Shown piece by piece: positions 17,545 to 42,425 of a stretch of 64,000 bases of DNA; the stretch's first letter is position 1; every line of letters starts with the position of its first letter. The stretch spans positions 1-64,000 of the forward strand of contig JAICSS010000011.1 of the NCBI GenBank assembly GCA_025936755.1, read 5' to 3'. The DNA comes from Solirubrobacterales bacterium (GTDB lineage: Bacteria > Actinomycetota > Thermoleophilia > Solirubrobacterales > 70-9). A program made the position numbers and the translations under genes. The notes under the pieces were generated by a model. It was not told the DNA's origin and ran no database searches. It saw only the letters and a list, made by a program, of their open reading frames with translations.

Positions 17545-17547
17545 CCG

Positions 17548-17581: not shown

Positions 17582-17650
17582 TCACCCGTCCGCTCCGGCA
17601 ACGCTTATGGATTTTGAACCGCGGCCCAGGGGAGGCGTTATTCTCGCCAC

Positions 17651-18337: not shown

Positions 18338-18378
18338 GCGAGGCATCCGCCGAAGAGAAGGGCGGATATCCTGCCCCG

Positions 18379-20358: not shown

Positions 20359-20492
20359 CGAAAAGTCGAACAGTCGAGTCAGGGTGACCCGGACGGCTTA
20401 CTCGTCGGCCGGGTCCTCCGGCTCGGACCGAACATCAACGCAGATCATCTCTGACCGACGCCCAAATGAGCAACACACTCGAGGAAGGCACT

Positions 20493-27500: not shown

Positions 27501-27805
27501 AGATCAACATCGACCTGGTCGGCTGGATCGACTCGGTGCTGAAGCACAACAAGCGCGGCGAGGTGACCTCGGCGCGGATCCGCAACCGGTTCATGGTCGT
27601 CCCCGACGCCCCGGTGAAAAAGTTCACGCTGGAACTCTTCGGCGGCAAGCGCGGCCTCTTGGTCAACACGACGAACCTTTGCCGGGGAAGACACGAAGCC
27701 GAAGTCAAGCTCACCGCCCACAACGGCAAGGCGGACAGCTTCAAGGCGCCGCTGAAGGCGCGGTGCGGCAAGAAGGGCAAGGGCAGGAAGAAAAGGCAGC
27801 ACTAG
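24524..27805 (+). CDS. Large secreted modular protein, DUF11-like N-terminus, paralogue of the 38353 gene
   Basis: 1093 aa, start ATG overlapping the previous stop. The signal peptide ends at AAAPALA. Residues about 30-165 resemble a DUF11/conserved-repeat domain (YSVLVTNTGDATAEGSPIVI). The rest is repeated modules with a recurring pattern: LPxG, a Cys, CPxxSxVG, YLAGxYxGxPIS, GPFDLGTVxVR, IDPxTGxV, DPLPxI, and FxLNPTSC. The last 80 residues (NRFMVVPDAPVKKFTLELFG, GLLVNTTNLC) align well with the 38353 product. No enzyme motif; probably a cell-surface or matrix protein. The short gene at 27809 encodes a single-module relative. Confidence 0.82.
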   Translation: MKRLKLAAVLIAGTALSAFAAAPALALTSSPQWTVTSVSRPTNFAPGDKSGSDSYSVLVTNTGDATAEGSPIVIVDELPAGLSLDSLGASGENSSHTFTPPDAKTAAFDCTFAACTYSGKVVPGQTLELAFPVDVAESPPPSCEVPAGAVSCVTNVVRVSGGGAPAVASVSTPTTISSTPAGFGIPPGGADTSLSSTQAGAHPDLTTSIAFDTVNAKGALAAAPKDTIDDLPPGYAGDLIDTASCSAALFALEECPIGSQIGVATIIIQGVLNGTFTEPVYNIDPNTGEVGKLGFSVIRSFLIEGGISVRPGDYGLRATFTNTNELSTEIDNVSLTIWGVPADPIHNPLRASEVFGSTIKWGGTSNAPRAPFFTNPTSCSSEPLQAAFTVNSWEEPQRRVTAQMPFGPTVGCDRLTIEPEVEVVPTSTSAYSPTGLNVHMKIPQTYDNPDGLATSHLRDVKVTLPEGMSLNPSAGSGLGSCTEAQFAYEGSTAEPAPGLGCPNESKIGTVHVRSPSLSEEATGSLFVAKPFENRFGLLLALYLIARIPNRGVVVAAAGEVHSDPVSGRLTTTFAENPKLPFSDFTLSFRQGATSPLVTPPVCGSFTTEADLTPWSVPDQHHFPPISPFLISSGVRGGPCPGAALAPFQPLLHAGSYSNQAGAYSPFYIRLSREDGEQEITHFSIKLPPGLLGKLAGVPLCSDAAIAGAKGRTGPHGGQEEEEHPSCPAASEVGRTEVEAGVGTVLASAPGKVYLAGAYHGSPISVAAITAARVGPFDLGTVVVREALKIDPETGEVSVDATGSDPLPHIIQGIPTHLRNIRIYMDKPEFVLNPTSCDRTSTASTVLGSGKDFVSEADDNPITVSSFFQAANCAALGFKPKLRFSLKGGTRRSQVPAFKAVLTARKGDANIAHAEVILPTSEQLEQSNVGLPCTRVQFAEGGGNGEGCPQSSILGRARAVTPILSEPLEGPVIFRSNGGERKVPDIVAALHGQEINIDLVGWIDSVLKHNKRGEVTSARIRNRFMVVPDAPVKKFTLELFGGKRGLLVNTTNLCRGRHEAEVKLTAHNGKADSFKAPLKARCGKKGKGRKKRQH

Positions 27806-27808
27806 CCA

Positions 27809-28591
27809 GTGCGAAGGCCTCGCGGAATCGTCCTTTTAGTGACGGTGGGGCTGGCGGCCCTCGCCGTTTCGAGCGCTTATGCCACCACCGTCCAGGAAGG
27901 TGGGCTGCGCGTCACGATCCTCGCCCAGATCTCCCCCTATAAGCTCCCTCGCACTGGTACCGCCCCGATCGCGGTCTTCCTCGCCGGCCATGTGGCCTCC
28001 ACCGCCGGCGGCATCCCACCTCAGCTGAAGCGGATGGACATCAAGGTCAACCGCCACGGCCTGTTGCAGTCCCAGGGCCTGCCGGTCTGCCCGATTCCCC
28101 GGATCAAAACCGCGACGACCGAGCAGGCGCTGGCGCGCTGCGCGCCAGCCCTGATCGGCTCCGGCCGCTTCTGGGCCCACATCGTCTTCCCCGACCAGCC
28201 TCCCTATCCGACCCACGGGCGCCTCCTGATCTTCAACGGCCGGGAGGGCGACAAGCGCCTCTTGCTCGCCCAGATCGCCACCTCGAGCCCGTTTCCCACC
28301 TCCTTCGTGATCGCTTTCGCCCTGCGCAAGATCCACCAGGGGAACTACGGCACCGAGCTCTCGGCGACCTTGCCCCAGGCGCTCGGAGAATGGGGCTACG
28401 TCGATCGCATCAAGCTCAACCTGAAGCGCAGATACCGCTACCGCGGCAGGGAGATGAGCTACTTCAACGCCGGCTGCCCCGCGCCGAAGGGCACCGACCG
28501 TGCCCCCTTCCCACTGGCCCTCGCCACCTTCTACTTCGAAGAACACACGCTCTCGGAAGAAGTGGTGAAGGCATGCGGGGTGCGGGGGTGA
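27809..28591 (+). CDS. Secreted single-module relative of the large surface proteins
   Basis: 260 aa from GTG 27809, 3 bases after the previous stop. Signal peptide (GIVLLVTVGLAALAVSSAYA), then a module with GLPVCP, ATTEQALARC, ALIGSGRFWAHIVFP, and a C-terminal YRGREMSYFNAGCPAP. The same motifs recur in the product at 41148, in the same position of the parallel operon. Four Cys are positioned to pair. Function unknown; co-transcription with the two preceding genes is likely. Confidence 0.8.
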   Translation: MRRPRGIVLLVTVGLAALAVSSAYATTVQEGGLRVTILAQISPYKLPRTGTAPIAVFLAGHVASTAGGIPPQLKRMDIKVNRHGLLQSQGLPVCPIPRIKTATTEQALARCAPALIGSGRFWAHIVFPDQPPYPTHGRLLIFNGREGDKRLLLAQIATSSPFPTSFVIAFALRKIHQGNYGTELSATLPQALGEWGYVDRIKLNLKRRYRYRGREMSYFNAGCPAPKGTDRAPFPLALATFYFEEHTLSEEVVKACGVRG

Positions 28592-28676
28592 GGAGCGTCG
28601 CGACAGTCTGCGCCGACCTCGCCCTCGGCCCCCTACCCGCTCGGCTCCCAGCCGCCCGGCCCCTGAGGTGTCCCCG

Positions 28677-29753
28677 ATGAAGATCCGAACGGTCCTCCTG
28701 CTGCCCACCGCTGCGCTGGCCGTCTCCCTGGTCCTCTGCTCCTCGGCCCAGGCCCTCTACGACCCGCTCGCTTCCGGCTCCACCACGATCGCCCTCGCGA
28801 GGCCGTTCGCCTCGCTCCTCGCCTCCCACGGCGTCAAGATCGAGGCGAAGGGCGGGGCCACCCGCAAGGGATCGCGGATCGTGCTGCCCGCCTCGGGCGG
28901 TGAATTCGACCCCGGCCTCGGCGCCGGCACGGTGGAGAGCGAAGGCACGCTCGTCCTCGCCGCGGGCAAGCGGAAGGTGATCCTCCGCAAGCTCCTCTTC
29001 AAAGCCAAGCGCTCCCCCCTCTACGCCAAGGTCGGCGGCGGCCAGCTGAAGATCGCGACGGCCTCTCGGCTACGGGCGAAGCGGGACGGCTTCGGTGAGC
29101 GCTTTGCCGCCGCCGGACTGCGGCTCACCGCCAAGCTCGCCAGCCGCCTGAACAAGAAGCTCCGCCTCGGCAAGGCGCTCTCATCCGGTCAGCCGCTCGG
29201 AAGCCTCGCCGCCCGGGCCATACCCGCCACCGTCCACCTTGCCCAACAGGGCCGCCTCTCCCTGGCGGTCGACCCCGCCTTCGCCGCGAAGCTGAACGGT
29301 CTCTTCGTCTCGCTGAACCCGATCGCCCCGGCCGAACTGTCTTCGGGGCCGACTCTGAGCTTCCCGGTCGGTCCCGAATCGACCCTGGCCCCGGACGGAA
29401 CGGGAGGGACGGTGAAGCTGGAAGGCGCTGCCGAACTGCTGCAGCTCGGCAGCGCCCAGGTCTTCTGGCGCGAAGCCTGGCTGGAGCCGGGCATCGCCTC
29501 GCTCCTGGTCGAAGTCGACCTCCAGCCCTCGCCGCCCCATTCCGGCCGCCGCCCGCAGGGCCCGCTGCTGGCCCTGCCGCCCGCCGCCGCCGGCTCGGAC
29601 CCGGCGGCACGGACGATCTCGATCTCCGGGCAGGGCGCGACCCTGACCGAAGCCGCCGCAACGGAGCTGAACGAAGCCTTCGCCGAAGGCAGGCCGAGCT
29701 TCAACGCCGGCGAGGTGGTGGGGACGATCTCGCTTGCCGCCACGGCCGAATAG
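28677..29753 (+). CDS. Secreted HtaA-like domain protein
   Basis: 358 aa from ATG 28677 with GAGG 8 bases upstream; a GTG at 28668 is the alternative. After a signal peptide (LLPTAALAVSLVLCSSAQA) there are two related halves, each with a Gly-rich turn and an FDPGLGAGTVESEGTLVL-type stretch followed by alternating hydrophobic/basic strands. This resembles HtaA domains, which in corynebacteria bind haemin at the cell surface, but no haem transporter lies nearby and the Tyr/His ligands cannot be assigned by eye. It closes the secreted-protein operon that begins at 19633. Confidence 0.62.
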   Translation: MKIRTVLLLPTAALAVSLVLCSSAQALYDPLASGSTTIALARPFASLLASHGVKIEAKGGATRKGSRIVLPASGGEFDPGLGAGTVESEGTLVLAAGKRKVILRKLLFKAKRSPLYAKVGGGQLKIATASRLRAKRDGFGERFAAAGLRLTAKLASRLNKKLRLGKALSSGQPLGSLAARAIPATVHLAQQGRLSLAVDPAFAAKLNGLFVSLNPIAPAELSSGPTLSFPVGPESTLAPDGTGGTVKLEGAAELLQLGSAQVFWREAWLEPGIASLLVEVDLQPSPPHSGRRPQGPLLALPPAAAGSDPAARTISISGQGATLTEAAATELNEAFAEGRPSFNAGEVVGTISLAATAE

Positions 29754-30081: not shown

Positions 30082-30726
30082 ATGGTGAGGCCCCGTTGTG
30101 AGCCGGCCGACGTCAGTGCTGGCGACGAGCGCTTTCGCCGCGCGATGGTCGACCTCTGCTTCGAGGTCGGCTACCCGCAGCTGACGCTGCCGATGCTGCT
30201 CGAGCGAGCGGAGCTCGGGGAGGAGGAGTTCAACCGGCGCTTCGACGATCTCGACGACTGCTTCTGCCAGACGCTCGAAGCCCACCGCGACGACTTCTTC
30301 GCCTACCTCGGCCGCGCCATGGCCCTTGCCGAGCCCGAGAGCTGGGCCGACCGCCTGCGCGCGGTCGCCTACGGCCTCCTGCGCTACCTCCGAGCCGACC
30401 CCGCCCGCACCCATTTCCTCACGGTCGAGCTGGGCCGCGCCGGCGAGCGAGCGACGCTGATCTGGACCGAGACAATCGTCAAGCCGCTCTTCGACCTGAT
30501 CGACGAAGGGCGCAGCGTCCGCTCCGACGCAGGCTCGCTCACCCGCTCCACGGCCGATGCGGTCGGCGGCGGCATCCTCCTGCAGATCCTCGCGGCGGTG
30601 GAAAAAGGGGATCTAGAGGAAGGCGAGCGGGTGGTGCCGCAGATGATGTACAGCGCCGTGTTGCGCTACCTGGGGCCGGCCGCCGCGGAGGCGGAGCTGC
30701 GCGTCCCGCCGCCGCCGGCCGCATAG
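30082..30726 (+). CDS. TetR-family regulator with a divergent HTH
   Basis: 214 aa from ATG 30082, preceded by AAGGAGG at a 7-base spacing. The N-terminal 60 residues keep the TetR HTH layout (DLCFEVGYPQLTLPMLLERA, then EEEFNRRFDDLDDCFCQTL) but the recognition helix is acidic, with Asp in place of the usual Lys/His, so DNA binding may be weak or altered. The C-terminal domain resembles the other TetR proteins here (ESWADRLRAVAYGLLRYLRADP). It lies at the end of the 19.6-29.7 kb secreted-protein block, the position held by the HTH-less genes in the other two modules. Confidence 0.8.
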   Translation: MVRPRCEPADVSAGDERFRRAMVDLCFEVGYPQLTLPMLLERAELGEEEFNRRFDDLDDCFCQTLEAHRDDFFAYLGRAMALAEPESWADRLRAVAYGLLRYLRADPARTHFLTVELGRAGERATLIWTETIVKPLFDLIDEGRSVRSDAGSLTRSTADAVGGGILLQILAAVEKGDLEEGERVVPQMMYSAVLRYLGPAAAEAELRVPPPPAA

Positions 30727-30833: not shown

Positions 30834-32111
30834 TCAGCCGACCGCCACCTCGAAGGCCTCCTCGGCGGGGAGGAACGGGGCGAGGGTCACGTAGACGAAG
30901 GTGGGCATCAGCTCGAGGAGGCGCTCGGGGCCGTTGGCTTTGACGAAGTCGTAGAGGAGGGTGTAGAGGGCGCCCCCGATTGCCTCGGCGGCGATCGGGG
31001 GGACGTCGGCGGCGATTTCGTAACCGGGCTGCAGCAGGCCCTCCATGCCCTCGGTCACCAGCTCGCGCTGCTCGAGGGCGCGTTTGCCGCCCCCGTACAT
31101 CTCGACTGCTCCGAGGCGCCCGTACTCCGGCTCTTCGGCGGCGAAGTGGAGCATCGCTTCCTGGGTGTCGTGGACCGCGCGCTCCCAGCTGCTTCCGCGT
31201 CGGAACGCCGGCAGCGCCGCTGCCAGCATCTGCGAGGAGCCGCTGTCGAGGGCCGCGACCATCGCGTCCTCCTTGCTCTCGAAATGCTCGTAGAAGGTGC
31301 GTTGGGAGGTTTTGGCGCGCTCGACGATGTCGGCGATCTTCGTCGCCTGGTAGCCCTTCTCGGAGACCGCGGCGGCGAGCCCGCGGAGCAGCCGCTCGGC
31401 CGGGGTGGAGGGGCGTTGACGATCCTCGAAGGAGAGAGATTTGACGGTCCGGGTCCGCCGCGCGCGCAGACGGCCTGGCGGCGGTGGGATCGAGAGCATC
31501 CACCTCCAGAGTTCCGGCGCGAGCCGGCTCAACTCGGCCTCTTCCCCGCGCAGCAGGCGCTTGTAGATCACCTTCTGCACGCCGCCGATGATCGCCCGCA
31601 CGATCTCGGCGGGTAGGCCTTCACGCGCGGGGACGCGCTCGAAGGCTGCCGAGACGAGCCGCTCGACGGCGTCGAAGGAGGAATCGAGGAGCGCGACCGC
31701 CGGCGGGCCCGCGGCGTAGATCTCGACCAGGCATGCCTTCGCGGTGGCCGGCTGGGCGCCGATCCGCCGCAGCGAGAGTTCGAAAGCCGCCCGCGCCCGC
31801 GTCTCCTCGTCCCCGAGGCCTTCCTCCCGGGCGAACTCGAGCGCCGGTCCGAGGATCGCCTCGACGGTGGCGAGGAAGCAGTCCTGCTTGTCCTTGAAGT
31901 GCTCGTAATAGCTGCTCTTCGAAACTCCCGAGAGGGCGCTGACGTCGGCGACGGTCGTCGCCTCGTAGCCCTTCTCCGCAACCGTCGCCACCATCGCCCC
32001 GAAGAGGCGTTCGCGCTGGCTGGCCGCGGTCCGCGCGTCCTTCGAGCCCCCGCCCGGCCGCATCTTCCGGGTGCGCAGCTCACTCGCATCCCCCCAGGGC
32101 GTCATGACCAT
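30834..32111 (-). CDS. Tandem TetR regulator: two complete HTH/ligand-domain units in one chain
   Basis: 425 aa, twice the family's usual length. Unit 1: HTH residues about 32-80 (RERLFGAMVATVAEKGYEAT, SKSSYYEHFKDKQDCFLATV), helical domain to about 210 with CLVEIYAAGPPAVALLDSSF. Unit 2: HTH about 239-285 (AERLLRGLAAAVSEKGYQAT, SQRTFYEHFESKEDAMVAAL), helical domain to the end (LAPFLPAEEAFEVA). Both HTHs look intact. TetR proteins normally dimerise; a fused dimer could read asymmetric DNA or respond to two ligands. It is divergent from the secreted-protein gene at 32330. Start ATG 32111 or 32105. Confidence 0.93.
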   Translation of the reverse strand: MVMTPWGDASELRTRKMRPGGGSKDARTAASQRERLFGAMVATVAEKGYEATTVADVSALSGVSKSSYYEHFKDKQDCFLATVEAILGPALEFAREEGLGDEETRARAAFELSLRRIGAQPATAKACLVEIYAAGPPAVALLDSSFDAVERLVSAAFERVPAREGLPAEIVRAIIGGVQKVIYKRLLRGEEAELSRLAPELWRWMLSIPPPPGRLRARRTRTVKSLSFEDRQRPSTPAERLLRGLAAAVSEKGYQATKIADIVERAKTSQRTFYEHFESKEDAMVAALDSGSSQMLAAALPAFRRGSSWERAVHDTQEAMLHFAAEEPEYGRLGAVEMYGGGKRALEQRELVTEGMEGLLQPGYEIAADVPPIAAEAIGGALYTLLYDFVKANGPERLLELMPTFVYVTLAPFLPAEEAFEVAVG

Positions 32112-32159
32112 GGGCCGACCTTATCCTGGTCCGCGCATGTCTCTTAATCTCCACCTTGG

Positions 32160-32205
32160 TTCGCGAAGCCCCTGGTACACGAGCGATTGTTTCAGCTAGA
32201 GATAG
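32160..32205. promoter_or_regulatory. Conserved 5' segment of tandem-TetR gene 1 (candidate operator)
   Basis: Includes palindrome TTCGCGAA (32160-32167) and a 35-base stretch from 32172 that matches 34984 onward at roughly two thirds of positions, starting CTGGTACnCGA and ending ATAGT. GGTTCGCGA and GGTACACGA form an imperfect direct repeat. It lies between the divergent promoters. Confidence 0.4.
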
Positions 32206-32293
32206 TTCCAGCCTAGAGGGTCATCATTCCGCTTGGATAAGCGAAATCCTGAGCCGGGGCTCCTTAGAGGCCCGGCGGCTCCCACCGAAAATA

Positions 32294-32322
32294 TTGACAA
32301 TCTGGTCCTTGTATGTTCCTAT
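32294..32322 (+). promoter_or_regulatory. Candidate promoter of secreted-protein gene 32330 (leaderless)
   Basis: TTGACA at 32294-32299 and TTCCTAT at 32316-32322. The expected start of transcription coincides with the GTG at 32330, so the mRNA would be leaderless, consistent with the absence of a Shine-Dalgarno sequence. About 25 of 35 positions match the promoter at 35100. Confidence 0.55.
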
Positions 32323-32329
32323 TTAGCCC

Positions 32330-33277
32330 GTGTTCGGCGGGTGGAGACACGGTCTTCGATGGACAGGGGCAGCCGTTCTCGCGGGCGCCCTGCTCGGCCC
32401 TTTCCCCTCGCTTCCCGGGGGGATCCCGGCCGCCCCCGCAGCGCTGCGCCCGGCCACCCCGCCGGCGACCTCGGCCGCCTTCACCGTCCGCGGCAGCCAC
32501 GGCTTCTCGATCGACGTCGAAAGCAGCGGCGGCCGCGTCCGGATCATCGCCTCCGATGCGGGGCCGCCGCTGCCCACCTTCTCGCGGACGGGCAGACCGC
32601 GCCTGGCTTCCAGCGGCAACGGCGCCTCCAGCGTCTATGAGCTGCGGACGCCGCCTGCGCCGCCGCGTCTGATCGAGGCCCCGCTCGGGGAGCTCGGTCG
32701 CATCTCCGTCCGCTTCCGTCCTTCGGGGCGCAAGCGCGTCACCCGCCTGGATCGCCATGCCGGTCCGTTCCCGTGCGACGGCGGGACACAGATCGTGCGC
32801 GCCCTCGGAACCTTCGTCGGCACGGTCGAATTCCGGGGCGAGGGCGGCTATACCTCGGTGGAGACCCGGCGGGCGCGGGGATCTGTGGGGACGCCGCTGC
32901 CCGCGGGCTGCTCCGAGCGCCCCCACCCGTCCGGGCGAGCCGTGCTCCATGCCCGCGACCGCGAGGCCGGAACACGGTTCCGGGCGAAGATGACCGACAC
33001 GGGGGTCGCGTTCCTCGCAACCCGGCGGGAGCGCCTCGACGGTGGCGTCGTCGTCACCCGCCGCGCCTACGCCGGCTGCCCTCCCGATTCCTTCTCCTCC
33101 GATGCGGACCTCTCGGCGGCGCGCGTCTGGCCGTTCGCCCCGTTCTCAGGGGTGGGTCGCTACCGTGCCGGTGGCGGACGCCCACGCTGGAGCGGCAACC
33201 TGCGGGCCACCTTCCCCGGCGGGACGATCCCCCTGACCGGGCCGGGCTTCCGCGCCGACCTGGGTGCCGGCGGATGA
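32330..33277 (+). CDS. Secreted protein of unknown function (module 1)
   Basis: 315 aa from GTG 32330. The N-terminus has basic residues and a hydrophobic core (WTGAAVLAGALLGPFPSLPG), a likely signal peptide. The mature part opens with AAFTVRGSHGFSIDVESSGG and has a beta-rich composition with Gly/Arg turns. Cys residues in FPCDGG, PAGCSER and YAGCPPD could form disulfides. I do not recognise the family. The stop overlaps the start of the HTH-less TetR-like gene (ATGA), so the two products are made together. Confidence 0.78.
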   Translation: MFGGWRHGLRWTGAAVLAGALLGPFPSLPGGIPAAPAALRPATPPATSAAFTVRGSHGFSIDVESSGGRVRIIASDAGPPLPTFSRTGRPRLASSGNGASSVYELRTPPAPPRLIEAPLGELGRISVRFRPSGRKRVTRLDRHAGPFPCDGGTQIVRALGTFVGTVEFRGEGGYTSVETRRARGSVGTPLPAGCSERPHPSGRAVLHARDREAGTRFRAKMTDTGVAFLATRRERLDGGVVVTRRAYAGCPPDSFSSDADLSAARVWPFAPFSGVGRYRAGGGRPRWSGNLRATFPGGTIPLTGPGFRADLGAGG

Positions 33278-33726
33278 GCGACCGCCGCGGCGCCCCTGGC
33301 TTCGCCGAGGCGCGCGCTCGCCTCGAGCTCGCGGTCGGCACAGCCTGCGAGAGCCACGAGGAATGGTCCGCTCGCATCACCGCCGGCGTCTACGCGGCGA
33401 TCGAGCTCGCCGCCGCCGATCCCGACGGGGCACTGGTCCTGACAAAGCAGGCGAGCGCCCGCTGGAGGCGCCGCGAGCCCGATTTCGCCTCGATGGTCAT
33501 CTGCTTCGCGCGGAGGCTCGCTCACGGCGCTCCCCCCGCCAACCCGCGCCTGCCGGACCCCCAGGTCGTCGTCGTCTGCCTCGCCCGGCAGGTCAACCAG
33601 CGGATCGAAGCGGGTCACGCAGCGCAGATGATGGAGATCGCTCCCGACCTCGCTTTCCTGGCTCTCCTCCCCTTCGTCGGGTTCTCGGGCGCCCAACGGT
33701 GGTCTCAGCCGAGCGCCGTCGCGTAG
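33274..33726 (+). CDS. TetR C-terminal-domain-like protein lacking the HTH (module 1)
   Basis: 150 aa. No DNA-binding HTH is present: the N-terminal 25 residues are too short. The rest aligns by eye with the product at 41973 (AAIELAAADPDGALVLT with AALEFAESDPLAACVLT; FARRLAHGAPP with FARLLGKGAPP; ending PDLAFLALLPFVGFSGAQRW) and shows the same plan as TetR C-terminal domains in this window (W..rv..gl.a.L.f.a.DP, ending in a LMPYLG-like tail). It may sense a ligand or pair with a TetR partner; this is inference. It is coupled to the secreted-protein gene by ATGA and overlaps the convergent tandem-TetR gene by 22 bp. Confidence 0.8.
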   Translation: MSDRRGAPGFAEARARLELAVGTACESHEEWSARITAGVYAAIELAAADPDGALVLTKQASARWRRREPDFASMVICFARRLAHGAPPANPRLPDPQVVVVCLARQVNQRIEAGHAAQMMEIAPDLAFLALLPFVGFSGAQRWSQPSAVA

Positions 33727-35015
33727 GCCTCCTCGGCTCCGAGGTACGGCGCCAGGGTGACGTAGGTGGCCGTCGGGACAAGCTCGAGCAGGCGCTCGGG
33801 ACCGCGTTCCTTGACGAAGTCGTAGAGCAGCGCGAGAACGGCGCCGCCGATTCCCTCGGCCACCAGGGGGGATACATGCGGCGCCAGCGCGTAACCGGGG
33901 GCCAGCAGCTCCTCCGTGGTTTCCGCCACCCGCGCGCGTTGCTCCAGCGCCCGCCTTCCGGCTGCGTAGACCTCGACCGCTCCCAGGCGCGCGTACTCGG
34001 GCTCTTCGGCGGCGAAGCGGAACATCGCCTCCAGGGTCGACCGCACCGCCCGCGGCCAGTCGGCGGCGGCGCGAAAGGCCGGCAGGACCGCGGCCAGCAG
34101 TTGGGCCGAGCCACTGTCGATCGCCGCCACCAGCGCCGACCCCTTGTCGGCGAAGCTCTCGTAGAACGTTCGCTGGGAGGTCCGAGCACGCTCGACGATC
34201 TCGGCGACCGTGACGTCGGCATAGCCCCGCTCGGAGACCTCGGCCGCCATCGCCCGCAGCACCCGCTCCGTCGGTTGCACGGCCCTCTGGCGATTCTCGA
34301 ACGGCCGTGCCCGCAGAGTCAGCCGGTCGGACGACAGCGGGCCGGGGGGCGGGGGGATGCAGAGCATCCACTCCCAGATGCCGGGGGTCAGCTCCAGGAG
34401 CACCGCCTCTTCCTGTCGCAGCAGGCGCGCGCGGATGATCTGCTGGGCGCCGCCGACCACCGCCCGCACGATCTCCGGCGGCAGGTCACGGCGATCGGGT
34501 TCGCGGTCGAGCACCCCTGCCAGGGCCGCGGTCAAGGCATCGAGGAGTCGGTCCAGCATCGCCGTCGCCCGCGGGCCCGCGGCGTACGTCTCGACGAGGC
34601 ACATCTCGGCGGCGGCCGGCTGGGCGACGACCGACTCGACCAGGGCGCCGAAGGCCCCGCGGCCGTCGGCCTCGCTCATGCCTCCCGATTCGACCGCCAG
34701 CTGCTCGAGCGGCGGGCCGATCATCGCGTCGAGCGCGGCGAGGAAGCAGCCCTGCTTGTCCTCGAAGTGCTCGTAGAAGGAGCTTCGGGCGACGCCGGAA
34801 CGATCGACCAGGTGGGCGACCGTCGTCCCCTCGTATCCCCGCTCGGCGACGGTGGCCACGAGCGCCGCGAAGAGCCGTTCCCGCTGGTTGCGTTCCGTCT
34901 CCGGTCGCGATTGCGAAGGCCCCGGCTTCAGTTTCCGCGCCCGCAGCGACTCAGCCTCTCCCCAAGGGGTAGTCGTTGTACGTCTGGTACGCGAATGATC
35001 GCTCAATTTAGACAT
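33705..35015 (-). CDS. Tandem TetR regulator 2: two HTH/ligand-domain units in one chain
   Basis: 436 aa from ATG 35015; an ATG at 35039 adds 8 residues, and neither has a clear ribosome-binding site. Unit 1 HTH: RERLFAALVATVAERGYEGT, then ARSSFYEHFEDKQGCFLAAL. Unit 2 HTH: TERVLRAMAAEVSERGYADV, then SQRTFYESFADKGSALVAAI. Each is followed by a helical domain; the inter-unit linker (IPPPPGPLSSDRLTLRARPF) matches that of the 30834 product. The two are clear paralogues over their whole length. It is divergent from the secreted-protein gene at 35219. Confidence 0.93.
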   Translation of the reverse strand: MSKLSDHSRTRRTTTTPWGEAESLRARKLKPGPSQSRPETERNQRERLFAALVATVAERGYEGTTVAHLVDRSGVARSSFYEHFEDKQGCFLAALDAMIGPPLEQLAVESGGMSEADGRGAFGALVESVVAQPAAAEMCLVETYAAGPRATAMLDRLLDALTAALAGVLDREPDRRDLPPEIVRAVVGGAQQIIRARLLRQEEAVLLELTPGIWEWMLCIPPPPGPLSSDRLTLRARPFENRQRAVQPTERVLRAMAAEVSERGYADVTVAEIVERARTSQRTFYESFADKGSALVAAIDSGSAQLLAAVLPAFRAAADWPRAVRSTLEAMFRFAAEEPEYARLGAVEVYAAGRRALEQRARVAETTEELLAPGYALAPHVSPLVAEGIGGAVLALLYDFVKERGPERLLELVPTATYVTLAPYLGAEEAYATALG

Positions 35016-35018
35016 AGT
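34983..35018. promoter_or_regulatory. Conserved 5' segment of tandem-TetR gene 2
   Basis: Counterpart of 32172-32206: begins CTGGTACGCGAATGATCG and ends ACATAGT. Here it covers the first codons of the gene, while in module 1 the matching stretch is about 60 bp upstream of the start. Its conservation across coding and non-coding contexts suggests a DNA-level function such as autoregulation. Confidence 0.4.
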
Positions 35019-35099
35019 GTCGAGCGCCTTTTTTCCCATTGAATAGCCATCTTAGAGGTCAATAAGAGAAAGGAACCGGGTCTTTTCAAGATTCGGCCC

Positions 35100-35128
35100 T
35101 TGACAAAATGGTAATTGTGCGTTTCTCT
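35100..35128 (+). promoter_or_regulatory. Candidate promoter of secreted-protein operon 35219
   Basis: TTGACA at 35100-35105, 17-bp spacer, TTCTCT at 35123-35128. Beyond the hexamers the spacer also matches the promoter at 32294 (TGGT, TTGT and GTT at the same positions). Confidence 0.55.
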
Positions 35129-35165
35129 TTCCCCAGGAGAGAACGGCCGCACACCTCGGCTAGGG

Positions 35166-35182
35166 GATCCGCTCTGCGGATC
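35166..35182. promoter_or_regulatory. Palindrome GATCCGC-tct-GCGGATC in the leader of the 35219 operon
   Basis: Perfect 7-3-7 inverted repeat about 36 bp upstream of the GTG and downstream of the predicted +1. It has the same arm and spacer lengths as the palindrome at 19121 but a different sequence. It could be an operator or an mRNA hairpin. Confidence 0.45.
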
Positions 35183-35218
35183 AGGCGAGGCGATGGCCAC
35201 GGGACAAGGAGAGATTTT

Positions 35219-38200
35219 GTGAGACACCGCGCGAAGGCGATAGCCGCTATCTCGGCATTGCTGCTTCTGACCAGCTTGTTGTCGGTGACCCTGGCTGCAG
35301 CGACGGCGCCTTCGGTGTCGATCGACGCGCCCTCCTCGGTCGCCTACACCTCCGCCCACCTCTCCGGGAAAGTGAACCCCGAAGACCGGGAAACGACCTA
35401 CCACTTCGAATACCAGGAAGCTGCCATCTGGTGGATGGGCTACATCAGCGGTCCCACTCAGGGCCCGCTGCTGGTCAACTCGGGCGAGGCGACGGTCGAA
35501 GAAGACCTCACCGGCCTGAAACCGGGGACCGAATACGTGGTCCGCCTGGTCGCCGAAAATCCGGACGGCCAGACGGTCTCCGCCGAACCCGACCCGACCT
35601 TCACCACCTTGGCGGTCGATGCCCCCACGGTCTCGATCGACGCTCCCTCCTCCGTCACCTCCTCGAGCGCCCACTTCTCCGGCGCGATCAACCCCAACGC
35701 CCCCGGCGGCAACCCGGCCGCCTACGACGTCGAATGGTCCTTCCAGTGCACGCCCGCGTGCCCGGGCCTCAACGGCACGATCCCCGCCGATGCCAACTCG
35801 CACACGGTGGAAGCCGACGCCACCGGGCTCAAACCCGGCACCGACTACTCCGTCGCCCTGGTGGCCACCAATGCCGGCGGCTCGGCTACCGCCGGCCCCG
35901 AAAGCTTCAGCACGCCGGCGGTGGCGCCGACGGTGTCGAACCTGCGTGCTACGGCGTTCCCGAGCGAAGCGACGCTCGAAGCCGCGATCGATTCCGGGGG
36001 CGCGGCGACCAGCTACCACTTCGAATACGGCTCGACGTCCAGCTACGGCAACTCGACCTCGACGCAGGTCACCCCGGCCGTCGCCGGCGAGGGACCGGCC
36101 ATCGCGCACGTCGCCGGTCTCGTTCCCGGGCAGACCTACCACTACCGCCTCGTCGCGAGCAACACCGCCGGCGCCGACCAATCGCCGGACCAGACCTTCG
36201 TCACGCCCGCCGCGGCCCCGGACTCTCCCCAGTTCGGTCCCGGGCTGATACCCGGCGCGGGATTCCTGCCCGACGGTCGCGGCTGGGAGAAGGTAACCCC
36301 CGACGACAAGGGTGGCGTTGACGTCGCCGGAGACTCCTACTACGCGCGCACCAAGGTCGCGGCCGACGGCAATTCGATCCTCTACACCTCGCTCGGCGTC
36401 TTCGCGGGCGGGCCCAGTGGCGGGTACCCCAGCTTTTACCAAGCCGGGCGCACCGCCGACGGCTGGGCTTCGCAGCCGCTTCTGCCCAAATCCGTCGCCA
36501 GCATCATCGGCGGACCTGGAGGGGGCGGACGAACGGCGGCGGTCCTCTACGCAAACGACGACCTGACCCGTTCGGTTGTCGAGACGAACACGCCCCTCGG
36601 GCCGGGCACGAGCCAGTACGTGCCCAACTTCTACACCCGCCTCCAGTCCAACGACTTCCAGTTGCTGACGCCGGGGGGGCCCTCATACCAGGACGCCCTC
36701 TTTTTTGGAGCTCCCGAGTTCAAGACGGCTACGCCCGACGGGGAACACATCGTGTTCAACTCCACGCATCAGTTCACCCCAGATGCTCCCGCCGGGTTCT
36801 CGAACAAGCTGTACGAGTCCATCGGGGGGGTGGTCCGGCTTGTTGGGATCCTGCCGGATGGAAGCCCGATGGAAAATGCTTACGCGGGAGCCAACATGGA
36901 TAGCACCAGTCACGCCCTTTCGGACGATGGCCGGCGCTTGTATTTCTCTGACAGCTTCGCGGGAAGCGGCACGCTCTATCTTCGGGAAGACGAACAGACC
37001 GTGAAGGTCGCGGATAACGCCCGCTTCTATACGGCAACGGCGGATGGGCGCTACATGATCTACCTCCAGAACGGGGAAAACTCGAGTGTCTTCAGGTACG
37101 ACGCAGAGACCAATACCAGCGAAGAGGTCTCAATCGACAGCGAACCCGGCGACGGAGAAAGTCCAGGGGTAAGGACTGTCCTGGCCACGTCCAAGGACCT
37201 GTCGTCCGTGTACTTCGCGGCCTCTGGCGATCTCGTGGCGGGACAGGAACCGATCAAGCTGACCCCGAGCAGCACTGATGTGGGCATCTACCTCTGGAGG
37301 GAAGGGGAGGTCCGCTTGGTGGCGGTTCTGAGAAACGATCGCGACGCGCCTCTCTCTGGCCCCGCCGACGATGTTTATTCCGTCACTCCGTTCGTCGATG
37401 GGTGGATAAACAACCCTTACGTGTCTTGGTCACCCAATGGAGACGTGTTGGCATTCGCAACCACCGCCAATGTGACCGGGTACGACGCCGAAGGCTACCG
37501 AGAGGTCTACAGGTATGACGCCGATTCGAACGACCTCGCTTGTATCTCATGTCTCAGTGGACGGGCTGACGGGGATTCGACGCTGATCGCTCCCCAGCCG
37601 CCGGGGGGCGGGACCTATCCGCGACCGCTGGGTCCGGGGAACTTCGTCTCTGACGACGGGCGACAGATCGCGTTCAGCAGCGCAGAGGCTTTGTCCCCGC
37701 AGGACTCGAACGGGAAGCTCGACGTATACAGGTGGAAGGAGGGTGAAGGCGTACGGCTCCTTTCTTCCGGAACCTCGCAGTACGACTCGCGTCTGCAGTC
37801 AGCGAGCCCCGACGGCCGGAACGTATTCTTCGCCACCCGAGCTCGTCTTTCCGCGAGAGACCAGGACAATCTGGTTGATCTCTACGACGCACGCGTGGGC
37901 GGAGGGTGGCCGGATCCCCCGGCCGCGACTGCCCCATGCGGCGGCGAACAATGTCAAGGCGCCCTGCAGCAGGCGCCAGATGCGCGGCGCCTTGGGAGCT
38001 CGACCGTCCAGACGCGAGCCGTGCCCTCGAAGCACCGAGTGCTGGCGGTTCGCAAGCGCGGCGTTCGCCTGACTCCGTCCGGGGCGGAGCTGCTGGTCCC
38101 GGTGACCGTCAACGCCGCGGGGACCGTACGGGTCGCTGTAAGCGAAAAGACGGCCAACGGCTGGAGAGCCACGGCTCAAAACAAGGTGAAGATCGCTGCT

Positions 38201-38350
38201 CCCGGGAGACATCTACTCAAGGTCCCCCTCGCAGATAGGACGAGGCGGTCCATACGCGAAGGAGCGCAGGTCAGGCTCAAGGCGAGCGTGTGGCTCGCGG
38301 GCACCAACCAACGCACTGTGGTGTCACTCAGCGCAAAGAGGGGGCGGTAA
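35219..38350 (+). CDS. Large secreted protein with fibronectin-like repeats and TolB-type beta-propeller (module 2)
   Basis: 1043 aa from GTG 35219 with AAGGAGAG 5 bases upstream; the frame is open to 35108, but that start would lie inside the promoter. Signal peptide with ISALLLLTSLLSVTLAAATA. Three fibronectin/Ig-like modules follow (each begins APSVSIDAPSSV or similar and contains GLKPGTEYVVRLVAEN-type strands). From about residue 330 there are TolB-like blades (SDDGRRLYFSDSF, TADGRYMIYLQNG, SPDGRNVFFATRA). A final basic beta domain (VRVAVSEKTANGWRATAQNK) closes it. It resembles the 20493 product in domain order, minus the NHL part. Confidence 0.87.
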   Translation: MRHRAKAIAAISALLLLTSLLSVTLAAATAPSVSIDAPSSVAYTSAHLSGKVNPEDRETTYHFEYQEAAIWWMGYISGPTQGPLLVNSGEATVEEDLTGLKPGTEYVVRLVAENPDGQTVSAEPDPTFTTLAVDAPTVSIDAPSSVTSSSAHFSGAINPNAPGGNPAAYDVEWSFQCTPACPGLNGTIPADANSHTVEADATGLKPGTDYSVALVATNAGGSATAGPESFSTPAVAPTVSNLRATAFPSEATLEAAIDSGGAATSYHFEYGSTSSYGNSTSTQVTPAVAGEGPAIAHVAGLVPGQTYHYRLVASNTAGADQSPDQTFVTPAAAPDSPQFGPGLIPGAGFLPDGRGWEKVTPDDKGGVDVAGDSYYARTKVAADGNSILYTSLGVFAGGPSGGYPSFYQAGRTADGWASQPLLPKSVASIIGGPGGGGRTAAVLYANDDLTRSVVETNTPLGPGTSQYVPNFYTRLQSNDFQLLTPGGPSYQDALFFGAPEFKTATPDGEHIVFNSTHQFTPDAPAGFSNKLYESIGGVVRLVGILPDGSPMENAYAGANMDSTSHALSDDGRRLYFSDSFAGSGTLYLREDEQTVKVADNARFYTATADGRYMIYLQNGENSSVFRYDAETNTSEEVSIDSEPGDGESPGVRTVLATSKDLSSVYFAASGDLVAGQEPIKLTPSSTDVGIYLWREGEVRLVAVLRNDRDAPLSGPADDVYSVTPFVDGWINNPYVSWSPNGDVLAFATTANVTGYDAEGYREVYRYDADSNDLACISCLSGRADGDSTLIAPQPPGGGTYPRPLGPGNFVSDDGRQIAFSSAEALSPQDSNGKLDVYRWKEGEGVRLLSSGTSQYDSRLQSASPDGRNVFFATRARLSARDQDNLVDLYDARVGGGWPDPPAATAPCGGEQCQGALQQAPDARRLGSSTVQTRAVPSKHRVLAVRKRGVRLTPSGAELLVPVTVNAAGTVRVAVSEKTANGWRATAQNKVKIAAPGRHLLKVPLADRTRRSIREGAQVRLKASVWLAGTNQRTVVSLSAKRGR

Positions 38351-38352
38351 GC

Positions 38353-41151
38353 ATGTGGAATATCGGTAACAGAAAAGCTGGCATCAACAGCCTCGCTGTC
38401 GCTCTGCTTGCTGCGCTCTGTGGGATGGCCATACTCGGTTCAACCGCCAGCTCGGCGACTGCGACCATGGACGTCGCCGCCTTCGACGGACGGGTGACTG
38501 CAGGGCCCGAAGGTGAACCCTTCACCCAAGCGGGTGGTCACCCCTTTGAATTCCAGACCGACCTCGATTTTGCGAAACAGGTGGACGAGATTGGCCTGGA
38601 AGTCCCGGACGAGGACGTCAAGACTGTAAGAGTCGATCTGCCCCCGGGCTTGGTCGGCAATGTAAACGCGGTGCCACCCTGCGATATTCCAACCTTCCTT
38701 TCCGGTGGTACCGAGGCTGGCTGCTTCAACGACTCGCAAGTCGGCGTCGTGATTCTGCGGACCGCAGCTATTCCAGTGCCGACGCATTTGCCGTTGTACA
38801 ACCTGGTGCCTCCGAGCGCGGATGTGCCGGCGGCATTCGGCTTCAGGTTTCTCGGCGTGCCTGTGCTGCTGGCGGCCTCTGTCCGGTCTAGCGGCGATTA
38901 CGGAGCAACCGTGACCGCGGCAGGTACGAGCCAGGGCTTGCAGGTGCTCGGCAGCAGCGTGAAATTCTGGGGTGTCCCCGCTGATCCCCGGCACGATAAA
39001 GAACGGTGCAGGTTCTTTGGGAACTTCGATCCCGTTCCAGCCTGCAACGGAGAACCGGGTACGGATAGCGGGCCGAACTCCGTGGGCCTGCCCGAGGTTC
39101 CCCTCCTGACCATGCCGACCAGTTGTTCCCCGCCCGGCGTCGGCCTGCCGGTCACCGCCCTGGTGGACTCCTGGCAGACGCCGGGTGTGTTCGACGAAGC
39201 GAGCTTCGCGACCCATCTGCCTCCGCAGTATCCGGCGCCGCCGAGCGAGTGGGGGCCGCCACAGGGGACGACCGGGTGCGATGCGGTTCCGTTCGATCCC
39301 TCGATCGACGTCCGTCCCGGCTCCTCCACGGCCGGAGACCCCACCGGCCTCCACTTCGAGGTCAGCTTTCCCCAGGGTGGCCTCCTGACCAGGGAAGGGC
39401 GGGGCACCTCGCACCTGCGTGACATCTCGGTGACGATGCCGGAGGGGCTGACGATCTCGCCCGCCGGCGCCGCCGGGCTGGGGTCGTGCACCGACGCCGA
39501 GTTCGGCGAAGGCAGCGAACGCGCGGCTAACTGCCCGGAGGCCTCCAGGGTCGGCACCGTCGAAGCCGTGACCCCGGTCCTGAGCCGCCCGCTCCACGGC
39601 GAGATGTTCGTCGCCGCGCAGCAGGGCCAGGATCCCGAATCGGGTTCGATGTACCGGCTCTTCCTCACCCTCAGCGGATCCGGCGTGGAAGTGAAGCTCA
39701 CCGGCCACGTCCGCGCCGATGCGAAGACGGGCCGACTGACCGTCAGCTTCACGGACAACCCGCAGCTGCCCGTCTCCAGCGTCGCGGTCGACCTCAAGTC
39801 GGGCCCCAGGGCCCTTTTGGTCAACCCGCGGGAGTGCGGGCAGAAGACCGTCTCCGCGACCCTGCTCGGATGGTCGGGGCGGCGCGTCGAGCGTTCGTCG
39901 ACCTTCTCGGTAGAGGGCGGCTGCGACGGCGCCTCAAGGTTCACGCCGTCCCTGGAAGCCGGCACCGAGAACCCCGTGGCGGGGCAGTCCTCCCCCTTCG
40001 TCCTGCGCCTGACCGGCGTCGACGGCCAGCCGAACGTCTCGTCGATCGAGGCCACCCTGCCGCAGGGCCTGCTGGCCAAGCTGGCCGGAGTTCCTTACTG
40101 CCCCGAGTCGCAGGCGGCAAGCGGGGACTGCCCGGCGTCGAGCCAGGTCGGGACGGCGACGGTGGGGGCCGGCAGCGGCTCCAACCCGATCTACGTCCCC
40201 CAGCCCGGCAAGGCACCGACCGCCATCTACCTGGCGGGTCCTTACAAGGGCGCCCCGATAAGCATCGTGGTCAGGGTTCCCGCCCAGGCGGGCCCCTTCG
40301 ACCTCGGCACCGTGGCGGTGAGGAACGCCCTTCGGATCGATCCGTCAACCGCCCAGGTGACCGCGAAGTCCGATCCGCTGCCGCAGATCATCGCCGGCGT
40401 GCCGATCTCCTACCGGGACATCCGGGTCGCGATGGACAGACCCGACTTCATCCTCAATCCGACCTCCTGCAAGCAGATGGCGGTGACGTCGTCGATCGCC
40501 TCGGTTGCCGGTTCGGCCGCGAGTCCGTCGTCTCGCTTCCAGGCGGCCGACTGCGCCGACCTCGGCTTCAAGCCGAAGCTCGCCCTGCGCTTCTCCGGGG
40601 CTCCGGCACGCCGCGGCGGCTACCCGACGCTGACGGCGACGCTGCGGATGCCGAAGGGCGGCGCGAACGTCGACAAGGCGGTGGTGACGATGCCCGAGAC
40701 CGAGTTCCTCGAAAACGCCCACATCCGCACCGTCTGCACGCGCGTGCAGTACGCCGCCGACGATTGCCCGAAGGGCTCGGTGTACGGCTACGCCAAGGCC
40801 TGGACCCCGCTGCTCGACAAACCGCTCGAGGGCCCGGTCTACCTGCGCAGCTCCAATCACACGCTCCCGGACCTGGTCGCCTCGCTCGACGGACAGATCC
40901 ACATCGACCTGGCGGGCCGGATCGACTCTCCCGGCGGCAGGATCAGGAGCACGTTCTGGGCAGTTCCCGACGCCCCTGTCAGCAAGTTCGTCTTGACGAT
41001 GCAGGGCGGCAGGAAAGGCTTGCTCGTCAACAACACGAACCTCTGCCGGACGAAGCCGAGAGCCTCGGCGTCATTCCTGGCGCAGAACGGCAAGAGCAGG
41101 GCCCTCAACCCGCTGGTCAGGGTCGCCGGCTGCGGGAAGGGACGACAGTAG
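38353..41151 (+). CDS. Large secreted modular protein (module 2), paralogue of the 24524 gene
   Basis: 932 aa from ATG 38353, 2 bases after the previous stop, with GAGGGGG upstream; the frame is open further upstream inside the previous gene. Signal peptide: AVALLAALCGMAILGSTASS. It carries the repeated module also seen at 24524: LPPGLVGN, ITMPEGL-like, CPEASRVGTVEAV, YLAGPYKGAPISIVV, AGPFDLGTVAVRNALRIDP, MDRPDFILNPTSC, and C-terminal FWAVPDAPVSKFVL plus GLLVNNTNLC. No catalytic motif. The first third is visibly less G+C-rich at third positions than the last two thirds. Confidence 0.85.
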   Translation: MWNIGNRKAGINSLAVALLAALCGMAILGSTASSATATMDVAAFDGRVTAGPEGEPFTQAGGHPFEFQTDLDFAKQVDEIGLEVPDEDVKTVRVDLPPGLVGNVNAVPPCDIPTFLSGGTEAGCFNDSQVGVVILRTAAIPVPTHLPLYNLVPPSADVPAAFGFRFLGVPVLLAASVRSSGDYGATVTAAGTSQGLQVLGSSVKFWGVPADPRHDKERCRFFGNFDPVPACNGEPGTDSGPNSVGLPEVPLLTMPTSCSPPGVGLPVTALVDSWQTPGVFDEASFATHLPPQYPAPPSEWGPPQGTTGCDAVPFDPSIDVRPGSSTAGDPTGLHFEVSFPQGGLLTREGRGTSHLRDISVTMPEGLTISPAGAAGLGSCTDAEFGEGSERAANCPEASRVGTVEAVTPVLSRPLHGEMFVAAQQGQDPESGSMYRLFLTLSGSGVEVKLTGHVRADAKTGRLTVSFTDNPQLPVSSVAVDLKSGPRALLVNPRECGQKTVSATLLGWSGRRVERSSTFSVEGGCDGASRFTPSLEAGTENPVAGQSSPFVLRLTGVDGQPNVSSIEATLPQGLLAKLAGVPYCPESQAASGDCPASSQVGTATVGAGSGSNPIYVPQPGKAPTAIYLAGPYKGAPISIVVRVPAQAGPFDLGTVAVRNALRIDPSTAQVTAKSDPLPQIIAGVPISYRDIRVAMDRPDFILNPTSCKQMAVTSSIASVAGSAASPSSRFQAADCADLGFKPKLALRFSGAPARRGGYPTLTATLRMPKGGANVDKAVVTMPETEFLENAHIRTVCTRVQYAADDCPKGSVYGYAKAWTPLLDKPLEGPVYLRSSNHTLPDLVASLDGQIHIDLAGRIDSPGGRIRSTFWAVPDAPVSKFVLTMQGGRKGLLVNNTNLCRTKPRASASFLAQNGKSRALNPLVRVAGCGKGRQ

Positions 41152-41966
41152 GCCGAGCAGGTTCGACACCCCGGGCGGTCCCCGCACCGCGAGCGCTCAC
41201 CGCGCTCGCGGTGCTCGCCGTTTCGGCGGCGCTGGGACCGGCACGCCCAGAGCGGGCGAGCGGGGAGCGGCACCAGCGGGGCAACCTGATCGCCTCCCTC
41301 GACGGTTCGCTCTCGCCCCGCGCGCTGCCGCGCGAGAGGAAGGCTCCCGTCGCCCTGCGGCTCGCGGGCGCCCTGCAGACGGGAGACGGGAGTGCCCTGC
41401 CGCGGGTGACGAGGCTCGAATTCGCCCTGCCGAGCCAGGGGACGCTCGACACCCGCGGGCTGCCCGTCTGCTCGCCGCGCCGGCTTCGCTATGCGACCAC
41501 CGAGCAGGCGATGGAGGCCTGCGGCAGCGCGCTCGTCGGTCGCGGCCGGCTCGACGCCCAGATCGTCCTCCCCGGACAGTCGCCGTTCGCTCTCCACGCC
41601 CGCCTGCTCGCCTTCAACGCTGGGATCGACGGCCGTCCTGCCGTGGTCGTGCACGGGTACGCGTCGGACCCGGCGACGATCGCCGTGCTCAGGTTCCACA
41701 TCGGGCGGAGCGAAGGGGGCCTGGGAACCAGGCTGATCGGCCGCCTGCCGCAGGCGCTCGGGCCATGGCCGCGCGTCGCCCGCTTCGAGATGCGGTTGTC
41801 CCGCCGCTTCACCTACCAAGGTAAGCCGCGCAGCTACCTGCGGGCCTCCTGCCCGCTTCCCCCGGCGCTCACCGCCGGCTTCTTCCCCCTGGCCCGCGTC
41901 GGCTTCCTGCTGGCGGGTGGAGGCCGGATCGCCGCCACGATCATCCGCGGCTGCAGAGCTCGGTGA
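41148..41966 (+). CDS. Secreted single-module protein, paralogue of 27809, with non-canonical GTA start
   Basis: 272 aa if translation begins at GTA 41148, which overlaps the upstream stop as GTAG, in the same place where other genes here use ATGA or GTGA. No ATG, GTG or TTG occurs in frame near the expected 5' end, while codons just after GTA encode a good signal peptide (ALTALAVLAVSAALGPA). The mature part shares GLPVCSPRRLRYATTEQAME, ALVGRGRLDAQIVLPG and YQGKPRSYLRASCP with the 27809 product. Either GTA is used, a start was lost, or the base is a sequencing error. Confidence 0.7.
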   Translation, partial: VGRAGSTPRAVPAPRALTALAVLAVSAALGPARPERASGERHQRGNLIASLDGSLSPRALPRERKAPVALRLAGALQTGDGSALPRVTRLEFALPSQGTLDTRGLPVCSPRRLRYATTEQAMEACGSALVGRGRLDAQIVLPGQSPFALHARLLAFNAGIDGRPAVVVHGYASDPATIAVLRFHIGRSEGGLGTRLIGRLPQALGPWPRVARFEMRLSRRFTYQGKPRSYLRASCPLPPALTAGFFPLARVGFLLAGGGRIAATIIRGCRAR

Positions 41967-41972
41967 CCGTAA

Positions 41973-42425
41973 ATGGGCGAACAGAAGCTCGTGCGGGAAG
42001 CCCTGCTGGATCCGGATGCGTTTGCCCGTTGCCGGCGGGACCTCGAAGCGGCACTCGCTCCGTCCTGCCGGGCCGGGCGGCCGTGGCCCGCCGGCGTCGC
42101 CGCGGCGATCCGGGCGGCGCTCGAGTTCGCCGAGTCCGACCCGCTGGCGGCGTGCGTGCTCACCTGCTCCTCGGCGCGGCGTCGGCTGGACGACCGCGCC
42201 TTCGTCGCGATGGTGGAGCACTTCGCGCGGTTGCTGGGAAAGGGCGCTCCGCCTACCCGTCATCCTGAGCGCACCGCCCACGCGGTGGTTCGTCGGATCG
42301 CCCGACAGGTCCTGCTCCAGCTCGAGCTCCGGCCCGGCGTCCCTCCGACCGCTATCGCTCCCGAGCTGATCGTCTTCGCGCTGATCCCATACATCGGCTT
42401 CGAGGAAGCACAGCGATGGGCGTGA
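41973..42425 (+). CDS. TetR C-terminal-domain-like protein lacking the HTH (module 2)
   Basis: 150 aa from ATG 41973, 6 bases after the previous stop; the last gene of the secreted-protein operon. There is no HTH; residues 36-150 (AGVAAAIRAALEFAESDP to ALIPYIGFEEAQRWA) match the module-1 protein at 33274 and, more loosely, the C-terminal domains of the TetR proteins at 17651 and 18379 (VEFVLMPYLGPEGAHR). The same position in two separate operons argues that this is a real component, not a decayed regulator. Possible roles: ligand sensor or dimerisation partner of the tandem TetR. Confidence 0.8.
   Translation: MGEQKLVREALLDPDAFARCRRDLEAALAPSCRAGRPWPAGVAAAIRAALEFAESDPLAACVLTCSSARRRLDDRAFVAMVEHFARLLGKGAPPTRHPERTAHAVVRRIARQVLLQLELRPGVPPTAIAPELIVFALIPYIGFEEAQRWA

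What the first reader, a model, noticed from the sequence alone, without database searches (positions are those of the whole stretch)
30834..42425. Repeated module: tandem TetR, divergent secreted-protein operon, HTH-less TetR-like last gene
Two adjacent loci share one architecture. Module 1: tandem TetR 30834-32111 (minus), secreted protein 32330-33277, HTH-less protein 33274-33726. Module 2: tandem TetR 33705-35015 (minus), secreted proteins 35219-41966, HTH-less protein 41973-42425. All three regulator-type components are paralogous between modules, while the secreted genes differ. This suggests a reusable regulatory cassette in which a double repressor controls surface proteins and an orphan sensor domain, made with the cargo, feeds back on the repressor. 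I know of no described system with these parts together.
Basis: partly seen in the sequence, partly recalled or inferred. Interest (0 to 1): 0.8.

Follow-up and report, generated by a model that had tools for sequence, protein, structure and literature searches.

The report
Double-TetR repressor cassette with HTH-less partner
In a soil actinobacterium, large secreted-protein operons are paired with a natural 'two repressors in one chain' switch and end in a gene for a related sensor domain that has lost its DNA-binding part but is still kept by selection, which points to a built-in feedback component on a known kind of switch.

Summary
Two loci (30834-33726 and 33705-42425) each have a fused double-TetR gene, a divergent operon of exported proteins, and a last gene of 150 aa. 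That protein is a TetR C-terminal domain without the DNA-binding part. The same layout recurs at contig C25 of this genome and at G002:C29. At C33 the last gene is a full-length TetR.

The double TetR is not new. Its nearest solved relative by sequence and by fold is M. tuberculosis Mce3R, a described 'double TFR'. What appears new is the HTH-less TetR domain as the operon's last gene. Four results argue that it is a real part: it is under purifying selection (dN/dS 0.13-0.26), it co-diversifies with the double TetR (Mantel r 0.83), the HTH was lost at least twice in the same slot, and a relative that lost the cargo kept both regulators. A 30-bp promoter/operator-like block precedes both window operons; the strict form occurs genome-wide only at 32294-32323 and at C25.

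The feedback mechanism is inferred. The claim that secreted genes differ holds only for module 1, and fused TetRs also exist without cargo. This is a new variant of a known kind.

The parts
30834..32111 (-). Module 1 fused double TetR (425 aa, HTHs at about residues 31-86 and 238-290)
   Evidence: Two TetR_N domains; HTH positions; relatives at C25, C33, G002, G001, G031
32173..32178 (+). TGGTAC element at a conserved place in the divergent region (starting at position 62-67 in four regions); possible second operator site
   Evidence: not significant on its own by weight matrix
32294..32323 (+). Promoter/operator-like block TTGACA-n3-TGGTCC-n5-TGTTC-n-TATT in front of the module 1 secreted gene
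   Evidence: only this and C25:74127-74156 genome-wide within 3 mismatches; reversed-pattern control 0; 0 expected in window
32330..33277 (+). Module 1 secreted protein (315 aa, signal-peptide-like N-terminus), not homologous to the cargo of the other modules
   Evidence: distant relative at C1:82437-83096
33274..33726 (+). Module 1 HTH-less TetR C-domain protein (150 aa), 4-base overlap with the gene before it
33705..35015 (-). Module 2 fused double TetR (436 aa)
   Evidence: AlphaFold2 pLDDT 85.2, pTM 0.82; best PDB match Mce3R
35100..35129 (+). Promoter/operator-like block of module 2 (TTGACAAAATGGTAATTGTGCGTTTCTCTT)
35219..38350 (+). Secreted protein with Fn3 domains and WD40-like propeller (PD40) repeats
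   Evidence: Pfam fn3 and PD40; cargo family NHL/Fn3
38353..41151 (+). Large secreted protein, family 'BIG' (no Pfam hit), widespread in the order
41148..41966 (+). Secreted protein, family 'D250' (no Pfam family reached)
41973..42425 (+). Module 2 HTH-less TetR C-domain protein (150 aa)
   Evidence: AlphaFold2 pLDDT 85.5, pTM 0.83; top PDB matches are TetR regulators
16909..19038 (.). Unfused TetR trio (16909-17544 -, 17651-18337 +, 18379-19038 +) of the neighbouring module
19633..29753 (+). Secreted operon of the neighbouring module (collagen-like, NHL/Fn3, BIG, D250, HtaA-like)
30082..30726 (+). TetR-like gene after the neighbouring secreted operon, HTH degenerate (no Pfam TetR_N hit)

Best explanation
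Each module is a self-contained regulatory cassette. The double TetR folds as a single-chain pseudo-dimer like Mce3R and represses the divergent secreted operon by binding an asymmetric site inside the promoter, between its -35 and -10. An unknown, probably hydrophobic, ligand releases it. The last gene of the operon makes a cytosolic TetR ligand-binding/dimerisation domain without HTH. It is produced only when the operon is on and acts back on the switch, most likely by competing for the same ligand or by contacting the double TetR. It thus sets the depth and duration of induction. Shown here: the domain content, the recurrence, the shared promoter block, purifying selection, co-diversification, and repeated HTH loss. 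Inferred: DNA binding, the ligand, the contact, and the sign of the feedback.
For: (1) Domain content. (2) The double TetR is Mce3R-like: top PDB hit by sequence, with two stretches, and top Foldseek hit over 412 alignment columns of the whole chain, E 6e-10; pTM 0.82 for the whole chain. (3) Conserved block in the promoter spacer at modules 1, 2, C25, G002:C29 and G001:C91; strict form only twice in 2.4 Mb. (4) HTH-less proteins dN/dS 0.13-0.26, against 0.17-0.28 for the double TetR and 0.34-0.44 for cargo D250. (5) Co-phylogeny r 0.83. (6) Tree: the 22 first halves and the 22 second halves are each monophyletic. Seven of eight HTH-less proteins form one clade; the eighth nests with full-length TetRs of the same slot (99/95), so HTH was lost at least twice. 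(7) G002:C14 lost the cargo but keeps both regulators side by side, with the promoter inverted repeat AAGATAG-N10-CTATCTT shared with C33. (8) No signal peptide and tight coupling in the operon.
Against: No complex, DNA or ligand binding was tested. Mce3R closes its four-helix bundle within one chain, which leaves no ordinary dimer face free for a partner. G019 has an HTH-less protein without a double TetR, and in G031 the two lie on different contigs with no cargo beside the double TetR. Many secreted operons of the same kind in the order have no TetR at all.
Confidence: 0.5

Rival explanations
1. Ligand buffer only. The HTH-less protein dimerises with itself, binds the inducer, and lowers the free ligand without ever touching the double TetR (negative feedback by sequestration).
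For: It keeps a TetR-type fold and its last helices are among its best conserved parts (50-63% identity). The double TetR should have no free dimer face (Mce3R, PMC11667970).
Against: Co-diversification with the double TetR is more than a shared ligand strictly needs. Its alpha-8 is less conserved than in full TetRs (33% against 45%).
Confidence: 0.25
2. Antirepressor by mixed assembly, as in the LuxR-type pairs TrlR/TraR and CerN/CerM. The HTH-less protein pairs with one half of the double TetR and takes it off DNA, giving positive feedback.
For: Precedent for HTH-less paralogues as antagonists in another family (PMC11655674); co-phylogeny; loss of HTH at least twice in the same slot.
Against: It would have to open an intrachain four-helix bundle.
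Confidence: 0.2
3. Cytosolic helper of the cargo rather than a regulator, for example a binding protein for a lipid or other substrate that the secreted proteins or the MMPL transporter handle.
For: Seven of the eight lie in or beside secreted operons or a double TetR with cargo; an MMPL transporter is inside the C25 and G002:C29 operons.
Against: In G002:C14 the cargo is gone and the (full-length) third TetR is kept next to the double TetR.
Confidence: 0.12
4. Decaying remnant: a former full-length operon-terminal TetR that became dispensable after the double TetR took over.
For: Full-length TetRs sit in the same slot at C33, G002:C14 and, from another TetR branch, G031:C111; degenerate HTH at 30082-30726.
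Against: dN/dS 0.13-0.26 over three species without HTH; intact frames in all eight cases; HTH lost at least twice with the rest kept.
Confidence: 0.07

Closest known systems
Mce3R (Rv1963c) of Mycobacterium tuberculosis, a 'double TFR' (PDB 9b7y; PMC11667970)
   Same: Two TetR units in one chain of similar length; best PDB match by sequence and by whole-chain fold; acts on an operon for envelope proteins; asymmetric sites, and here too no inverted repeat of 7 bp or more lies within the promoter block of modules 1 and 2.
   Different: Low identity (16% in the structural alignment). No HTH-less TetR partner is reported for Mce3R in the passages read. Different cargo. DNA binding not shown here.
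TrlR/TraR and CerN/CerM (LuxR family; described in PMC11655674)
   Same: A paralogue without HTH modulates a full regulator.
   Different: Different family and fold; partners there are ordinary regulators, not double-chain ones; acyl-homoserine lactone ligands.
Engineered single-chain TetR (PMC1797012; seen in search results only)
   Same: Two TetR units joined in one chain.
   Different: Man-made, from Tn10 TetR; no third component.
FadR/FasR-type acyl-CoA-sensing TetR regulators
   Same: Best single-domain structural neighbours of the double TetR; weak NCBIfam similarity to FasR.
   Different: One TetR unit per chain, homodimers, palindromic operators (general knowledge of the family).

Membership tests
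TetR family, double-TFR (Mce3R-like) subgroup | Two TetR_N HTH domains in one chain | tested here: met
   Two TetR_N stretches in each protein; positions
TetR family, double-TFR (Mce3R-like) subgroup | Each HTH followed by a TetR C-domain, the chain folding as one asymmetric pseudo-dimer | tested here: met
   AlphaFold2 whole-chain pTM 0.82; Foldseek aligns the whole chain to Mce3R, E 6e-10, TM 0.57/0.63, rmsd 7.1. A prediction, not an experiment.
TetR family, double-TFR (Mce3R-like) subgroup | Binds nonpalindromic operator(s) upstream of the adjacent operon | not testable with these tools
   A conserved, non-palindromic promoter block is present; binding not tested
TetR family regulator (for the 150-aa protein) | N-terminal TetR_N HTH | tested here: not met
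   No TetR_N hit, no room upstream; so it is a TetR C-domain protein, not a TetR regulator
TetR C-terminal domain (for the 150-aa protein) | Sequence and fold homology to TetR ligand-binding/dimerisation domains | tested here: met
   38% identity, E 1.6e-12 to the C-half of a TetR at C26; alignment; top 50 PDB entries are TetR regulators, best Z 12.0, rmsd 4.3, 140 aligned (a Z this size is not decisive alone for helical bundles). No PDB chain reached E 0.1 by sequence profile.
HTH-less antagonist pairs (TrlR/CerN type) | HTH-less paralogue inhibits DNA binding of its full-length partner | not testable with these tools
   Complex prediction and binding assays not available

The most novel reading that the evidence does not exclude
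An operon-encoded, HTH-less TetR domain acts directly on a natural single-chain double TetR: a three-domain switch in which two DNA-reading TetR units and one DNA-blind unit evolved as a set and were copied several times to control different surface-protein operons.
Probability: 0.35. Interest if true: 0.7.

Novelty: new variant of a known kind. Interest (0 to 1): 0.55.

Why it matters
Double TetRs are rare and, in the PDB copy searched, only Mce3R turned up as a two-unit match. This lineage has many in one genus, with a shared origin, candidate operators, and a conserved DNA-blind partner. That makes two open questions testable: how a single-chain TetR reads asymmetric DNA, and whether one-component TetR switches have dedicated feedback proteins, as LuxR-type systems do. 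It also gives a first handle on when these bacteria make their large surface proteins, whose function is unknown.

Tried and rejected
- Pseudogene or remnant reading of the 150-aa protein: disfavoured by dN/dS and by intact frames.
- Upstream HTH missed through a frame error: rejected, because upstream genes overlap or abut and the upstream frame has no HTH.
- Secreted operon as the reason for TetR presence in general: rejected. Most cargo loci in the order lack a TetR neighbour.
- The fused TetR as an unknown protein kind: rejected once Mce3R appeared.
- A second full copy of the operator in modules 1, 2 and C25: a weight matrix found none clearly above the shuffled 95% level; only TGGTAC recurs at a fixed place.
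- The first genome-contig query with a 16-sequence alignment gave no usable pattern. The single-protein query gave only distant double TetRs.
- Paper searches for HTH-less TetR proteins found none; the held library is partial.
- The 182-aa protein at G006:C149 (L061, L111) is a weak possible ninth member without convincing context.
- Structure prediction was restricted to window proteins and loci of the search for related loci, so shallow alignments were used.

Full report
Setting. The window is contig 16 of a 2.4-Mb genome. Its relatives found in a named collection are mostly Solirubrobacterales.

The observation. Both modules are in the sequence at the given coordinates. Each double TetR has two TetR_N domains. 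The two 150-aa proteins are 40% identical and align with the C-terminal halves of full TetRs. AlphaFold2 gives an all-helical model (pLDDT 85.5, pTM 0.83), and its top PDB entries are TetR regulators. The first-stage description needs two corrections. Module 2 cargo is paralogous to cargo at C25 and C33. A third module with unfused TetRs and a degenerate TetR-like last gene (30082-30726; no Pfam TetR_N hit) lies immediately upstream.

Recurrence. Gene calling and local HMMs over loci from this and related genomes show the following layouts. G000:C25 and G002:C29 have double TetR, divergent secreted operon and HTH-less last gene; both operons also carry an MMPL transporter (Pfam hit for C25; the G002 protein is its homologue by eye). 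G000:C33 has the same layout with a full-length TetR as last gene. G001 has what look like the two ends of such a locus on two contigs. G001:C12 has an HTH-less protein next to a double TetR. G031 has both parts on different contigs. G019 has only the HTH-less protein. By profile, the eight HTH-less proteins stand well above all full TetRs in 201 genomes of the order (184-212 bits against at most 117); they are also the rows from which the profile was built, so the gap is partly by construction.

I count about 22 double-TetR loci. Roughly 16 have secreted cargo beside them; the rest (for example G007:C89, G008, G009, G011, G031) do not. A sample that started from the cargo shows that this NHL/Fn3 + BIG pair is widespread and mostly without TetR neighbours outside this genus. 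In three distant loci (L078, L081, L096) a full TetR, with a MarR-like domain in the one scanned (L078), is the gene just after the cargo.

Evolution. A tree of 111 TetR C-domains puts the 22 first halves and the 22 second halves of double TetRs in one clade each (100/99 and 97/96), so one fusion is enough. Seven of eight HTH-less proteins form a clade (99/92). The eighth groups with the full-length last-gene TetRs of C33 and G002:C14 (99/95), so the HTH was lost at least twice in this slot. Distances between double TetRs and their third-slot partners correlate (r 0.83, 2 of 50,000 permutations). With species orthologues removed, r is 0.60 (21 of 720). Cargo D250 also tracks the double TetR (r 0.94, 3 of 120, five loci only). 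Among three species, the HTH-less protein has dN/dS 0.13-0.26, the double TetR 0.17-0.28, and cargo D250 0.34-0.44. In G002:C14 the cargo is absent, but the double TetR and the third TetR are still neighbours.

Promoter and operator. The divergent regions of modules 1, 2, C25, G002:C29 and G001:C91 share TTGACA-n3-TGGTCC-n5-TGTTC-n-TATT or a close form on the cargo side. This reads as a -35, a conserved 17-bp spacer and a -10 (inference). The strict pattern occurs twice in the genome within three mismatches, at module 1 and C25; the reversed-pattern control gives none. A looser form finds modules 1 and 2 only in the window, with none expected. A TGGTAC starts at positions 62-67 of four of these regions. 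No inverted repeat of 7 bp or more lies inside the block of modules 1 and 2, whereas the C33 type has AAGATAG-N10-CTATCTT in the same place, kept in G002:C14 and nearly kept in G001:C12.

Comparison. The double TetR is Mce3R-like by sequence and by whole-chain fold. PMC11667970 describes Mce3R as a double TFR with an asymmetric intrachain four-helix bundle, two 25-bp nonpalindromic sites, and about 204 relatives predicted in actinomycetes. No paper found in the held library describes a TetR C-domain protein without HTH in such a role. HTH-less antagonists are known in the LuxR family.

Judgement. The cassette and the reality of the HTH-less part are well supported. Its role as a feedback component is the best reading, because it is made from the operon, is kept without HTH, and evolves with the repressor. 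Direct proof is missing. Complex prediction, DNA binding and ligands could not be tested here.

Noticed in passing
L021, L043, L047-L052 (several genomes): Unfused TetR trios, one divergent and two in tandem, stand upstream of a gene of about 380-390 aa that at G000:C35 looks like dCTP deaminase (dcd); same broad TetR branches as in the secreted modules.
   Followed up: partly
L018, L030, L031, L039 (double TetRs of 594-654 aa): Some double TetRs carry an extra C-terminal stretch of about 150-190 aa that looks by eye like a winged-helix domain, giving three putative DNA-binding parts in one chain.
   Followed up: no
L033-L037 (G006, G007, G008, G009, G011): A double TetR beside a conserved gene of about 106 aa; in G006 a secreted NHL+BIG pair lies between them, as if inserted.
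   Followed up: partly
window 24524-27805, 38353-41151 and many loci: A secreted family of about 950 aa ('BIG'), with many invariant Cys, Pro and Gly, is multi-copy across Solirubrobacterales and matched no Pfam or NCBIfam family.
   Followed up: partly
L112 9888-15625 (G031:C173): Seven neighbouring TetR genes, one of them a fused double TetR of 454 aa by gene call, next to a secreted operon.
   Followed up: no
window 30082-30726, L020 12319, L044 1591, L031 6723 and 17168: A TetR subgroup with weak or degenerate HTH (Pfam TetR_N below or near cut-off), in two-plus-one arrangements like those with the HTH-less proteins.
   Followed up: partly
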